64,000 nt of DNA from Gavia stellata. Its lineage: Eukaryota > Chordata > Aves > Gaviiformes > Gaviidae. The stretch is taken from assembly GCF_030936135.1 (NCBI RefSeq), contig NC_082613.1, positions 2,852,001-2,916,000 of the forward strand, given 5' to 3'. Below the pieces are notes generated by a model that did not search any database, had not been told where the DNA came from, and saw nothing but the letters and a program-made list of their open reading frames with translations. The number at the start of each line of letters is the position of its first letter. Positions within the stretch are counted from its first letter, which is position 1. Positions 21,878 to 39,765 of this stretch are shown one piece after another. Position numbers and translations under genes: made by a program.

Positions 21878-21883
21878 TTTATT
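21878..21883 (-). terminator. Poly(A) signal of the DEPTOR-like gene
   Basis: A canonical AATAAA (read on the minus strand) lies about 130 bases past the stop codon. It implies a short 3' UTR and cleavage near 21.85-21.87 kb. No closer signal is seen. Confidence 0.6.
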
Positions 21884-36800: not shown

Positions 36801-39765
36801 AGAAAAGGTTTGTTTGGTTAAATACAATAGTGGGGGGGGCAGGGCAGGAAGCGGAGAACAGGGAAAAACAAATGTTTGAGATTTTATGTAGCGTTATTTG
36901 CTGTTGAGGCTTACAGAGTCAGGGCAAACCACAAGGCTCCTTTATGAGCTTTTTTATTCCTTACCTGGGGGAAAGCAGGGGAGCACAATGCAGACATTTA
37001 GCCCTGCCCCATCTGCTGTTGCCTGAGGCATCGCCCAGCTTCTCTGCCTCAGTTTCCCCATCACAACCTATTGGACACCCAGGCCCCGGGAAGGTTCACA
37101 TCGCTAACTCATTACCTGCCAGGCTGCAAGATCCCCGAAAGACAAGAGACAGACTCGAGCACCCAGCGTGCTCCGCTCTGCGTCCCTCAATTCTCCTTTC
37201 AGCCAGAGGAGCTGCAGGGGAAGGAGGAGCCCAGCTGCAGGCTGGTGTCTATCTCTTCCCCCTCCTCCCCGGCTTTTACACCCCGTGCTGGCCAGCGGCT
37301 CCTTCCACTCTTTCTGCACTGGGAACGGGCTCCTGCCCAGAGCAAAGCAGAAGAATGTGACTGCTCTGTGCCAAGCCACCCGCCGTAGGACCCACCTCTC
37401 CATCACTGTCAGCGCTGGGGTCCTTCCTCAGCCTTCATCCTCAGCTCCTCTCCACGCAGGGAAGAGCTCGAGCCTTTCAAGAGCAGGTCAGGGGCGTGAA
37501 GCAGTCAAGGCCACCCAAAAGCAGATCGGATCTGCTCCATGCGCTCTGGTGTTTGCAAACCAGCACGTGTCTCCCAGCATCGCGGTGCTGGCGTATGACA
37601 GTGTCTGAAGGGAGGGCTCTTACCTCTTCTCTCCGCTTGTACGCGCTTCCGACCCCTCCTATCACCCCTTCCAGCAGAGATAACCTGCATCAGGTTCACA
37701 ACCGGAGCAAGCAGTTCAAGATCGCAACCTGCTGCGATGGGCTTGGTCTGAAAACTCTCACATTTTGGGAGCTCCCTCACCAGGAACTCCAAGGCACTCC
37801 AGCTATGGGGCTGGGGGGGAAGACGGGTGGCCCCAAAAATTACATACATCTTGGGTTTTCTATTCACCTTTATCCCAGTCACACTAATGGAAAGATATTC
37901 CCTCCCTGCACAAACCTTGCCTCCCTTCAGGCTTTTAGCATCCTTTTTAAAGGCTCAGAGTACATTCACGCTGACAGTAAGGAGTGAGGTTTCCAGACAA
38001 ATATTGGGAGGAAAAAATGAGTTGGTATTACTGGTTTTCAGAAGAGTGTAACATTTGTACTATGCCTTTACCTTGCTTATAAGAACTAGCATAGCGTGCA
38101 GTATAGTACAAGAGCTCTATTCACAAATTTATTGTATCCCCTTTTCCTCCTTAGAGTCACAATCGCCAAATAGTCCAGGATCCGACATGGTCCTGTCCTG
38201 CAAAAGGCGCGAGGAAGCCACGCCACTCCCCTTGCACACGCACTGGTCACCGTTTTAACACATGGCTTGATTATTTTATTTTCTCTCTGAATACCTGACC
38301 CCCTCCTTTGGCCTAGGCTATAGGACCCATTTTAAACCTCAGCCACTCCAGAGGAGTAAAATACTGGAAATATAAATACGAATAAGCCTGCCCTGCCCAC
38401 AAGATGGAAAAAGTCATAACTTGACGTCTCTTGCACTGAGTTATTGAATTGAGGCAACTCACTCTTAGATCAGCTACTGCTTTTCCCTATGCGAAAGTTA
38501 AGCTCGTGTTCAAAGCCTTGCTTACAGCATGGACTGCAAACACTGCTAAGGCAGAAAGGTTGATGCAGCCTCCAACAGCAGCTCTCCCAGTCACTACCTG
38601 AGGAAAAGATTTAATTTCTGGAGCTAGGACAGTAATATTTGTGAAAGACAATAGACTGGCAATGTAGCTAACCATCACTACGTATTTAAAATCCAGCCAC
38701 TCTAAACATCGGCTTGTGTTTTCAAGATAGGGCCCTAATCCTTAGCTGGAAATTATCAATCCTTGATACAGTACAAATAATAAAGCTAAAGCTAACATGA
38801 CTCACTGAGAGTGGACAACATAGCCACACAGAGCTAATTTTAGGAATCTGATGCTAGCAAACCTGGGCTCTGGGCTCTTCACTTTATTCAAGGATGTATT
38901 TCCTATTTTCCACCCACATTTCAAAATAAAACAGAACGACTCCAGATACAAACAAGCAAACTCTGCTCAAGAGCTAGAAAAGCCTACAGTCGCATGCTTA
39001 GAAGAAAGCGGGGGGGTTCTGACCCCAGATACACAAGGAACAAGTTTTCTCAGCCACACAGGTTTTCTTGCATAGGAGAATATATTTCTCTCTTCATCAG
39101 AAAAAAACCTCAGAATTTGCTCAAAAACTGGGACTACAAACCAGCAGAAGTTCCCGAAAGTGACTTTAAGAGAGGGAAGACCCTACATATTGCTGCGCAA
39201 AACAATTCAGGTGTGTGGCACCCATGGAACGACCTCCCAGATCACCCCGAAGGTCCGATCGCCCTCGGAGGCAGTGCTGTCCCCAGCCAGCCAGGGATCA
39301 GGGACTCTGGGGAGGCTGCTCAGTGTCACCACATCAGGCTCTGGGTTTAGGGAGGGATGCAAAGGGATTAAAAAAAACCCCTGTTGCCATCTAAAACCAC
39401 CTGCCAGTCCCCAGGCACCGGGAGGCGGAGGGCGGGAGGTGCCCTGGGAGGAGCAGCAGGACAAGGTAACATGGGAAAGGATCCAGTTCACCACTGGTTT
39501 GGTGGGTGAAGGAAGGATCAGCAGATACTGGGGAAGGGGAGACGCTAGCACCTGGGGGAAAGCGCTTGCTCAAGGATAAAGCTTTGAGCCTCCTGCTAAC
39601 GGGGTACAGTCCAGAGCCCCTGGGCTAACCCTGGGCACAGCCCTGCCCCAGCCTGGAGAAGGGCCCCATCACCTCCTACCTCAGCTGCTCTCCGGCAATC
39701 ATCACCTCCGCCCTGTAGTGCTGCTCCGTGGCTTTCTTCTTCAGGCTGTTGCTCAGGCTCTCCAT
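21878..39765 (-). CDS. DEPTOR-like gene (DEP-DEP-PDZ protein, 398 aa, complete, 9 coding exons)
   Basis: Nine exons (86, 179, 124, 179, 186, 141, 71, 105 and 126 coding bases) join without a frame break into a 398-residue protein, close to human DEPTOR (409 aa). Domains in order are DEP1 (about 29-112), DEP2 (about 130-215), a Ser/Pro linker (216-320) and PDZ (323-398). Near-identical DEPTOR blocks include HLRTYPNCFVAKEL, YRFRKDDGTFPL, DWLVQEGEAESRKEA, NFRRRRRL, SPFCLRK, KEIKIVSAVRRSS, VGDAVGWGFVVRG and VNGMYVLHLDY. DEPTOR binds and restrains mTOR complexes through its PDZ domain and linker; this role is inferred here from similarity. The neighbour is COL20A1, whereas human DEPTOR neighbours COL14A1, so I call this a paralogue rather than DEPTOR itself. 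It could still be named DEPTOR in an assembly lacking the other copy. The human Ser-Ser-Gly-x-x-Ser degron is absent. Confidence 0.93.
22011..22136 (-). CDS. DEPTOR-like exon 9, PDZ domain end and stop
   Basis: The coding part of 126 bases (42 codons including TGA at 22013-22011) encodes VCQFVFSVNGMYVLHLDYQT and LIMTGPRTLVMEVMEAIE. The acceptor is CTCCCTGCAG. The tail ends EAIE, where human DEPTOR ends in ELEC as I recall it, so the final Cys is missing. Confidence 0.94.
   Translation of the reverse strand: MCQFVFSVNGMYVLHLDYQTISSLIMTGPRTLVMEVMEAIE
23336..23440 (-). CDS. DEPTOR-like exon 8, PDZ domain first half
   Basis: This 105-base, phase-0 exon encodes 35 residues: IVGDAVGWGFVVRG, then RPCHIQAVDPGGPAAAAGMK. 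It contains the carboxylate-binding GWGF loop and the Ala-rich turn typical of the DEPTOR PDZ. The borders are GCTCGTAG and ATGAAG|GTACTT. Confidence 0.94.
24912..24982 (-). CDS. DEPTOR-like exon 7, linker before PDZ
   Basis: This 71-base exon (phase 1 to 0) encodes VLKRPVTNEELLAPGAPYIK and KTLT, nearly identical to DEPTOR. The acceptor is TGCTCTAG and the donor is CTAACT|GTAAGT. Confidence 0.93.
25312..25452 (-). CDS. DEPTOR-like exon 6, regulatory linker
   Basis: This 141-base exon (phase 1 to 1) encodes residues 252-298: TNKEIKIVSAVRRSSITSLA, GNSNPYFSTTPTLVFPPV and CNPKS. It aligns with the human phosphodegron linker, but the Ser-Ser-Gly before Tyr-Phe-Ser is replaced by Asn-Ser-Asn-Pro. 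The borders are CTCTTTCAG and AAATCAG|GTCTGG. Confidence 0.93.
25831..26016 (-). CDS. DEPTOR-like exon 5, end of DEP2 and linker start
   Basis: This 186-base exon (phase 1 to 1) encodes VSNRHHFFDSDVLYQFWTNF, the basic run RRRRRLTELLNEN and SESPDSPFCLRKL. The poly-Arg segment and SPFCLRK are diagnostic of DEPTOR. The borders are CTCCTAG and CTCTCTG|GTAACT. Confidence 0.94.
26641..26819 (-). CDS. DEPTOR-like exon 4, DEP2 domain
   Basis: This 179-base exon (phase 2 to 1) encodes residues 130-189: LVSVEESILKVREENSVKYQ, RTFLGCEMIDWLVQEGEAES, RKEA and LLEHGIIQH. It has exactly the same length and phases as exon 2, consistent with internal duplication of the DEP unit in this family. The borders are CTGTGCCAG and CAGCACG|GTGAGC. 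Confidence 0.94.
28089..28212 (-). CDS. DEPTOR-like exon 3, end of DEP1
   Basis: This 124-base exon (phase 1 to 2) encodes VCDEHSDYKDAKLLYRFRKD and VFMRGQSLYEK, matching DEPTOR closely. The acceptor is CCTTTCAG. The in-frame donor is GAGAA|GTACGT; a second strong donor, GTGAGT, begins four bases further on and would break the frame if used. Confidence 0.93.
31054..31585 (-). repeat. CR1 LINE, 3' end (copy A)
   Basis: Read on the minus strand, this ends with the CR1 3' tail (CCAACCGTAGTGATTCTGTG). Upstream it encodes the end of the CR1 reverse-transcriptase ORF (ECVQRRATELVRGLEHKSDE and LGLFSLEKRRLRGDLITLHN). It is 5'-truncated, as most CR1 copies are. It lies in intron 2 of the DEPTOR-like gene, about 250 bases past the DEP1 exon, in the same orientation as the gene. 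Confidence 0.9.
31840..32018 (-). CDS. DEPTOR-like exon 2, DEP1 domain
   Basis: This 179-base exon (phase 2 to 1) encodes residues 29-88: RLRLHDGKLIKDRR, then TYPNCFVAKELTDWLIDHKE and ETGIRLMQKLMDHYIIHH. This is the core of the first DEP domain. The acceptor is TCTCTCTAG and the donor is CATCACG|GTGTGT. Confidence 0.94.
32019..39679 (-). other. DEPTOR-like intron 1
   Basis: This 7.7 kb intron separates the start exon from DEP1. I see no coding exon in it. It contains an AT/CA simple tract at about 33815-33842, a G-rich run at 33971-33993, an A run near 34035 and a GC-richer stretch at 37.1-37.7 kb. Long frames such as 33302-33721 and 37168-37608 on the plus strand have no family similarity or splice support that I can see. 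Confidence 0.75.
33971..33993 (+). repeat. G-rich run (G7-T-G10-T-G4)
   Basis: Twenty-one of 23 bases are G on the plus strand, broken by two T. Such a run can supply four G-tracts of three or more and could fold as a G-quadruplex. Its C-rich complement would be in the nascent RNA of the DEPTOR-like gene, so any effect would be at the DNA level. Confidence 0.85.
39680..39765 (-). CDS. DEPTOR-like exon 1, start codon
   Basis: The ATG at 39765-39763 has G at -3 and G at +4. The exon encodes MESLSNSLKKKATEQHYRAE and continues to AGEQL, equivalent to the V-T-G-E-Q-L-R segment of DEPTOR just before DEP1. The donor is CTGAG|GTAGGA, phase 2. The frame stays open upstream to an ATG at 40014, giving a possible 83-residue extension. 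I prefer the downstream ATG because of its context and family length. The long Gly/Ser-rich N-terminus of human DEPTOR is not recognisable here. Confidence 0.82.

What the first reader, a model, noticed from the sequence alone, without database searches (positions are those of the whole stretch)
21878..39765. Intact DEPTOR paralogue between COL20A1 and ARFGAP1: second half of a duplicated DEPTOR-FACIT collagen block
Seen: nine exons join in phase into a 398-residue DEP-DEP-PDZ protein very like DEPTOR, lying immediately upstream of COL20A1 on the same strand. Known: human DEPTOR lies immediately upstream of COL14A1 in the same orientation on 8q24, and COL14A1 and COL20A1 are paralogous FACIT collagens. 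I recall no such gene in the human COL20A1-ARFGAP1 interval. Inference: the pair duplicated as a block, probably in early vertebrate genome duplication, and this second DEPTOR was kept in this lineage but lost on the way to human. A second mTOR-complex regulator would matter for avian growth and metabolism.
Basis: partly seen in the sequence, partly recalled or inferred. Interest (0 to 1): 0.78.

Follow-up and report, generated by a model that had tools for sequence, protein, structure and literature searches.

The report
Second DEPTOR gene beside COL20A1
This bird DNA carries an intact second copy of DEPTOR, a gene for a brake on the cell-growth switch mTOR; relatives of the copy turn up from sharks to marsupials but not among placental mammals in the lists seen here, and nearly all lack the tag by which mTOR has the ordinary brake destroyed.

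Summary
Nine GT-AG exons on the minus strand (39765 to 22011) join into one 398-residue DEP-DEP-PDZ protein, between ARFGAP1 and COL20A1, all on one strand. It is a true DEPTOR paralogue, here called DEPTOR2. A 60-row tree splits it from ordinary DEPTOR at 100/100; both sides hold cartilaginous fishes, ray-finned fishes and tetrapods, so the copies parted before living jawed vertebrates diverged. Fourteen species in it hold both. In nine of nine comparable species DEPTOR2 and COL20A1 lie on contigs of identical length; a chicken paper lists DEPTOR with COL14A1 on chromosome 2. The block-duplication reading is well supported, but the gene is not bird-specific. No placental is named among 148 DEPTOR2 rows (capped lists). 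NCBI already annotates it as "DEPTOR-like"; my paper searches listed no description. New here: the beta-TrCP degron SSG[Y/F]xS is in 48 of 51 ordinary DEPTORs but 1 of 144 DEPTOR2 rows, while the mTOR-binding linker and three RXXL boxes persist. Inferred function: an mTOR brake that mTOR cannot remove through beta-TrCP.

The parts
39680..39765 (-). DEPTOR2 exon 1, ATG (MESLSNSLKKKATEQHYRAEVMIAGEQLR)
   Evidence: Donor GTAGGA; the same start context occurs in shark P0041 (MESLQNSVKKKATERHHKAEVLITGEQ)
31840..32018 (-). DEPTOR2 exon 2, first DEP domain
   Evidence: GT-AG, in phase; Pfam DEP
28089..28212 (-). DEPTOR2 exon 3, end of first DEP domain
   Evidence: GT-AG, in phase
26641..26819 (-). 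DEPTOR2 exon 4, second DEP domain
   Evidence: GT-AG, in phase
25831..26016 (-). DEPTOR2 exon 5, end of second DEP domain and start of long linker
   Evidence: GT-AG, in phase
25312..25452 (-). DEPTOR2 exon 6, linker with the degron-equivalent stretch
   Evidence: GT-AG, in phase
24912..24982 (-). DEPTOR2 exon 7, N-terminal extension of the PDZ domain
   Evidence: GT-AG, in phase
23336..23440 (-). DEPTOR2 exon 8, PDZ domain
   Evidence: GT-AG, in phase
22011..22136 (-). DEPTOR2 exon 9, end of PDZ domain and stop codon
   Evidence: Acceptor AG, stop TGA
21878..21883 (-). AATAAA poly(A) signal
   Evidence: Only AATAAA/ATTAAA between 22011 and 21701 on the minus strand, starting at 21883
25364..25381 (-). 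Residues 276-281 SNPYFS, aligned to the human beta-TrCP degron SSGYFS (286-291)
   Evidence: Alignment of 199 DEPTOR-family rows plus a numbering reference
25313..25327 (-). Residues 294-298 CNPKS, identical to human 304-308, the linker that binds a groove of the mTOR FAT domain
55894..63780 (-). ARFGAP1 3' exons (three pieces: 63715-63780, 57190-57252, 55894-55971)
   Evidence: tblastn of crocodile protein P0021
35..13076 (-). COL20A1 5' half: FN3, VWA and further FN3 exons (exon borders not worked out)
   Evidence: Open frames; Pfam VWA 187 bits and fn3; collagen alpha-1(XX) chains 5kf4 and 2dkm for the FN3 parts; bird collagen alpha-1(XX) proteins up to 92% identical

Best explanation
The gene is an intact, constrained paralogue of DEPTOR, born when a DEPTOR plus FACIT-collagen block was duplicated before the crown of jawed vertebrates, most likely in an early vertebrate genome duplication. 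DEPTOR-COL14A1 is one daughter block and DEPTOR2-COL20A1 the other. Placental mammals appear to have lost DEPTOR2. Shown here: gene structure, tree, neighbours, conservation, and the missing degron. Inferred mechanism: the PDZ domain and the CNPKS linker anchor DEPTOR2 on the mTOR FAT domain and the DEP tandem restrains mTOR, as in DEPTOR. Because the SSGYFS phosphodegron and the mTOR priming serine at 299 are gone, active mTOR cannot send it to SCF-beta-TrCP. Three RXXL boxes of the kind read by APC/C-CDH1 remain. DEPTOR2 would then be a steadier, cell-cycle-cleared brake beside the self-destructing one.
For: Gene intact. Tree split 100/100 with cartilaginous fishes, ray-finned fishes and tetrapods on both sides; rooting at that split ties with one neighbouring root for fewest duplications plus losses among 118 roots. 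DEPTOR2 and COL20A1 on contigs of identical length in 9 of 9 species that have lengths in both lists. The two DEPTOR copies on contigs of different length in 12 of 13 species with both lengths. Chicken DEPTOR listed with COL14A1 on chromosome 2. Degron strict motif 48 of 51 versus 1 of 144. Ser299: 51 of 51 versus 4 of 144; Ser265: 51 of 51 versus 1 of 144. CNPKS identical; PDZ 80.7%, DEP tandem 71%, linker 58% identical to bird DEPTOR P0066. RXXL boxes kept in 141, 142 and 146 of 148 DEPTOR2 rows. Three unnamed contigs of 1.6-2.6 kb hold DEPTOR2 frames of 389-397 residues, against a coding span of 17.8 kb in the window, which points to spliced RNA.
Against: No binding, inhibition or turnover was measured. 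DEPTOR2 is the faster copy in 100 of 105 comparisons between 15 pairs (14 species plus one cross-species bird pair), median 2.48-fold, so function may have drifted. A P-REX outgroup gave an absurd root inside the birds (support 2/0); monophyly of DEPTOR2 was not rejected (p-AU 0.193) but not positively shown. Inside DEPTOR2 the lungfish and sharks are not placed as the species tree asks. The degron could have been gained by DEPTOR instead of lost by DEPTOR2; polarity is untested. Single degron serines survive: position 286 is Ser in 107 and 291 in 41 of 144 DEPTOR2 rows, and the window keeps Ser at both and Thr at 293 and 295, so a weak or altered phospho-site is not excluded. A 13-site alanine mutant of human DEPTOR had an IC50 like wild type in vitro (PMC8439657 passages), which fits retained inhibition but says nothing about DEPTOR2 itself.
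Confidence: 0.72

Rival explanations
1. DEPTOR2 is the same ancient paralogue but has lost mTOR binding and does something else, for example acting as a PDZ/DEP adaptor at membranes.
For: Faster evolution than DEPTOR; DEP tandem only 71% identical to bird DEPTOR.
Against: The most conserved parts include those that touch mTOR in human DEPTOR: CNPKS 304-308 identical, PDZ 80.7% (contacts). Among human positions 28-408 only two (46 and 114) are fixed differently at the 95% level.
Confidence: 0.2
2. It is the ordinary DEPTOR, moved beside COL20A1 by a translocation, with no second copy.
For: Overall resemblance to DEPTOR.
Against: Both genes in 14 species and a 100/100 split; chicken DEPTOR listed with COL14A1; DEPTOR2 and COL20A1 on contigs of one length from birds to squamates.
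Confidence: 0.01
3. A lineage-specific or retroposed copy, or a decaying pseudogene.
For: None found.
Against: Eight introns, nine exons in phase, no stop; 90% identical to a turtle protein and 78% to a shark protein; sharks in the same clade.
Confidence: 0.01
4. An old small-scale (segmental) duplication of the DEPTOR-collagen block before jawed vertebrates, not a whole-genome duplication.
For: The tree dates the split only to before the jawed-vertebrate crown; no named lamprey or invertebrate row was available.
Against: The two DEPTOR copies lie on contigs of different length in 12 of 13 species, each with its own FACIT collagen where seen; human 8q and 20q share many such gene pairs (recalled, from no call).
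Confidence: 0.15

Closest known systems
DEPTOR (DEPDC6), ordinary vertebrate copy
   Same: Two DEP domains, long linker, PDZ; similar length; CNPKS linker; three RXXL boxes; a FACIT collagen as neighbour (COL14A1, chicken)
   Different: DEPTOR2 lies beside COL20A1 and ARFGAP1, lacks the beta-TrCP degron and the Ser265 and Ser299 phosphosites, is the faster-evolving copy, and no placental row was listed
P-REX1 and P-REX2
   Same: Also carry tandem DEP plus PDZ; next-best PDB matches
   Different: Rac exchange factors of about 1,600 residues; far more distant (E 1e-42 to 1e-40 against 1e-181)
[quoted passage not shown]
   Same: Same group by tree
   Different: Automatic names; no paper with these names was found in the held library

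Membership tests
DEPTOR family (DEP-DEP-linker-PDZ) | Two DEP domains followed by a PDZ domain | tested here: met
   Pfam DEP in two stretches; PDZ_6 26.4 bits against cut-off 27; alignment to human DEPTOR to the last PDZ residues
DEPTOR family (DEP-DEP-linker-PDZ) | Closer to DEPTOR than to P-REX | tested here: met
   E 2.8e-181 for DEPTOR against 9.8e-43 for P-REX2
DEPTOR family (DEP-DEP-linker-PDZ) | Linker residues 304-308 that bind the mTOR FAT groove | tested here: met
   CNPKS identical in the window product; N, P and S each in at least 139 of 148 DEPTOR2 rows
DEPTOR family (DEP-DEP-linker-PDZ) | Binds and partly inhibits mTORC1 and mTORC2 | not testable with these tools
   Needs biochemistry
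Ordinary DEPTOR orthologue group | Falls in the clade of ordinary DEPTOR | tested here: not met
   Outside it, 100/100
Ordinary DEPTOR orthologue group | beta-TrCP phosphodegron SSG[Y/F]xS | tested here: not met
   SNPYFS in the window; strict motif in 1 of 144 DEPTOR2 rows against 48 of 51 DEPTOR rows
Genome-duplication paralogue (ohnologue) | Split older than jawed vertebrates, in a duplicated block | tested here: met
   Cartilaginous fishes in both clades; a FACIT collagen neighbour in both blocks (window; chicken)
Genome-duplication paralogue (ohnologue) | Split dated to 1R or 2R with lamprey and invertebrate outgroups | not tested
   No such named sequence reached; P-REX root uninformative

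The most novel reading that the evidence does not exclude
Most jawed vertebrates outside placentals run two mTOR brakes with opposite control: DEPTOR, which active mTOR destroys through beta-TrCP to make a switch, and DEPTOR2, which mTOR cannot destroy that way and which the cell-cycle ligase APC/C-CDH1 may clear. Placental mammals lost the steady brake and rely on the self-destructing one alone, which would make mammalian mTOR control atypical among vertebrates.
Probability: 0.35. Interest if true: 0.75.

Novelty: new variant of a known kind. Interest (0 to 1): 0.56.

Why it matters
[quoted passage not shown] Studies of mTOR, growth and metabolism in chicken, zebrafish or axolotl that target 'DEPTOR' may be missing half of the pair. 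A natural paralogue that kept the mTOR-binding linker and lost the degron is also a ready comparison for asking what the mTOR-DEPTOR destruction loop does for an animal.

Tried and rejected
Outgroup rooting with human P-REX1/2 DEP tandems failed: the root fell inside birds with support 2/0, so I relied on the species content of the clades and on counting duplications and losses. The counts (61 events at best) are inflated by gene-tree noise and unsampled groups; the DEPTOR/DEPTOR2 root ties with one neighbouring root.

I looked for positions fixed differently in the two clades at the 95% level: only two (46 E/D and 114 F/L), so I built no binding-loss case on them. PMC3548764 (passages) did not state DEPTOR-COL14A1 adjacency in human; the human 8q24 and 20q13 gene orders and the 8q/20q paralogon are recalled. 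Literature searches for a DEPTOR paralogue, its names or its loss listed no paper on the subject by title or abstract start; one search showed 20 of 178 papers and one search showed 10 of 85, and only open-licence PMC papers are held. In one search the word 'DEPTORL' (PMC5404102) proved to be a floxed mouse allele; four papers with 'deptor2' were not opened.

Placental absence rests on lists cut at 120 rows, not on genomes. A marsupial row scored 724 and 591 bits, above both cut-offs (607 and 557), so a similarly diverged placental row would have been listed. A very diverged or unannotated one could be missed; rows are 90% clusters shown by one representative name, and three DEPTOR2 rows have no name. 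In one search the top row by E-value was a Conger collagen XII-like protein at 42% identity, ahead of the collagen XX rows at up to 92%; I take this as an effect of summed repeat domains and identify the gene by the identities.
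Full report
What is there. On the minus strand nine exons, with GT donors and AG acceptors throughout, join in phase into 1,197 nt and 398 residues. The exon 3/4 border needed care: a longer in-frame exon 4 can be read, but the donor after 28089 and the acceptor before 26819 give the length and alignment of DEPTOR. Human DEPTOR (7owg) matches residues 13-398 at E 2.8e-181; P-REX2 comes next at 9.8e-43. 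Pfam gives two DEP stretches; PDZ_6 is 0.6 bits under its cut-off. An AATAAA signal follows the stop codon.

Neighbours. tblastn places ARFGAP1 3' exons at 63780-55894. Exons at 13076-35 carry FN3 and VWA domains. Their FN3 parts match collagen alpha-1(XX) chains 5kf4 and 2dkm, while the VWA part matches collagen VI and others. The joined pieces match bird collagen alpha-1(XX) proteins at up to 92% identity, collagen XIV rows at 48-50% and collagen XII-like rows at 41-46%; some bird isoform rows align at only 56-71%, and the top row by E-value is a collagen XII-like protein of Conger at 42%. All three genes are on one strand. A crocodile gene model (P0021) fuses ARFGAP1 to this gene, which suggests the same adjacency there.

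Who has it. A protein search returned 682 hits, the best 120 listed: birds, turtles, squamates, crocodilians, platypus, a marsupial, salamanders, caecilians, a frog, lungfish, bichir, sturgeons and sharks, mostly ahead of ordinary DEPTOR, which comes in at about 65-71% identity. A second search with the gar copy (646 hits, 120 listed) brought in many teleosts, some named si:dkeyp-97e7.9.

Tree. I chose 59 of the 198 DEPTOR rows, plus the window. The tree separates 24 ordinary DEPTORs from 36 DEPTOR2 rows at 100/100 with a branch of 0.257. Cartilaginous fishes, ray-finned fishes and tetrapods occur on both sides; 14 species occur on both. A quick tree of all 199 rows gives 51 and 148 with the same split. 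Within DEPTOR2 the lungfish and sharks are not placed exactly as the species tree asks. Distant rooting failed; rooting at the split ties for the fewest events among 118 roots.

Gene order elsewhere. The protein lists print the length of a contig that holds each gene. Nine species have such a length for both DEPTOR2 and COL20A1, and all nine agree to the base: Grus americana, Centrocercus urophasianus, Anas acuta, Elgaria, Paroedura, Anolis, Hemicordylus, Pogona and Vipera latastei. This shows one contig or chromosome, not adjacency. Thirteen species have lengths for both DEPTOR copies: Pogona, Elgaria, Ornithorhynchus, Ambystoma, Pleurodeles, Microcaecilia, Rhinatrema, Ascaphus, Anguilla, Clupea, Danio aesculapii, Paramormyrops and Puntigrus. 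Twelve differ; in Pogona both lengths are the same. For chicken, a table row of PMC11507135 (passages seen) lists ENPP2, TAF2, DSCC1, DEPTOR and COL14A1 at an SNP on chromosome 2, 136.7 Mb. I did not see a named chicken DEPTOR2 row; chicken COL20A1 is.

Loss in placentals. None of the 148 DEPTOR2 rows is named as placental; the one named placental DEPTOR row (P0110) is ordinary. The marsupial row stays above the cut-offs of both lists. Three DEPTOR2 rows are unnamed. This is evidence from capped lists, not from genomes.

What changed. In ordinary DEPTOR the linker holds SSGYFS (human 286-291), which beta-TrCP reads once S286, S287 and S291 are phosphorylated (PMC7834987 passages). PMC8933699, citing earlier work, says that mTOR phosphorylates S299 and T295 and so primes S286 and S287 (passages). 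Aligning all rows, the strict motif SSG[YF]xS is in 48 of 51 DEPTORs (P0086, P0119 and P0120 lack it) and in 1 of 144 DEPTOR2 rows that cover the linker (Chanos, SSGYSS); 4 of 148 were left out for gaps. Two more DEPTOR2 rows hold only a broader [DS]SGxx[STDE] match. Ser299 and Ser265 are Ser in 51 of 51 DEPTORs and in 4 and 1 of 144 DEPTOR2 rows. Against this, positions 286 and 291 are Ser in 107 and 41 of 144 DEPTOR2 rows and in the window. The window protein has no [DS]SGxx(x)[SED] motif anywhere; 7 of 148 DEPTOR2 rows have one somewhere, against 49 of 51 DEPTORs.

What stayed. Human residues 304-308 bind a groove of the FAT domain (PMC8439649, Results section read); they are CNPKS in the window, unchanged. 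Identity to bird DEPTOR is 80.7% in the PDZ, 71% in the DEP tandem and 58% in the linker. PMC9927933 (passages) reports three conserved D-boxes, of which the third is needed for CDH1 binding. That these are the paper's three boxes is my inference from number and order.

Mechanism, with steps marked. Shown: intact gene, conserved protein, mTOR-contact linker kept, degron and priming sites missing. Inferred: binding to mTOR, partial inhibition, escape from beta-TrCP, clearance by APC/C-CDH1. Against: faster evolution in 100 of 105 comparisons and no functional data. Three contigs of 1,566-2,591 bases hold DEPTOR2 frames of 389-397 residues; since the coding span in the window is 17,755 bases, these are probably spliced transcripts.

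Standing. The gene is in databases under automatic names, and its family is well known. Its age, its block, its missing degron and its absence from placentals are not the subject of any paper that my searches listed (listings only, some capped). [quoted passage not shown]

Noticed in passing
window 31051-31560 and 40590-41070: Two pieces that read like the 3' end of a CR1 LINE reverse transcriptase (name recalled), one in intron 2 of DEPTOR2 and one just upstream of exon 1.
   Followed up: no
window 39800-40284: Some bird models (P0001, P0005, P0007) add about 130-162 residues before the conserved start, read largely from this GC-rich stretch; the shark (P0041), turtle (P0010) and lizard (P0016) models are 397-398 residues without it, so it is probably annotation noise.
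   Followed up: partly
P0021 (Crocodylus porosus): A single gene model joins ARFGAP1 to DEPTOR2; either a read-through transcript or a fused annotation.
   Followed up: no
P0177 (Platysternon megacephalum): A protein of collagen XX type carries the source name 'T-box transcription factor TBX15'.
   Followed up: no
P0242 (Chanos chanos DEPTOR2): The only DEPTOR2 row with a strict degron-like motif (SSGYSS); it could be regained or chance.
   Followed up: no
Pogona P0016/P0071 and Tiliqua P0215/P0225: Genes of both daughter blocks sit on contigs of the same length, so the blocks probably share a chromosome in these squamates.
   Followed up: no
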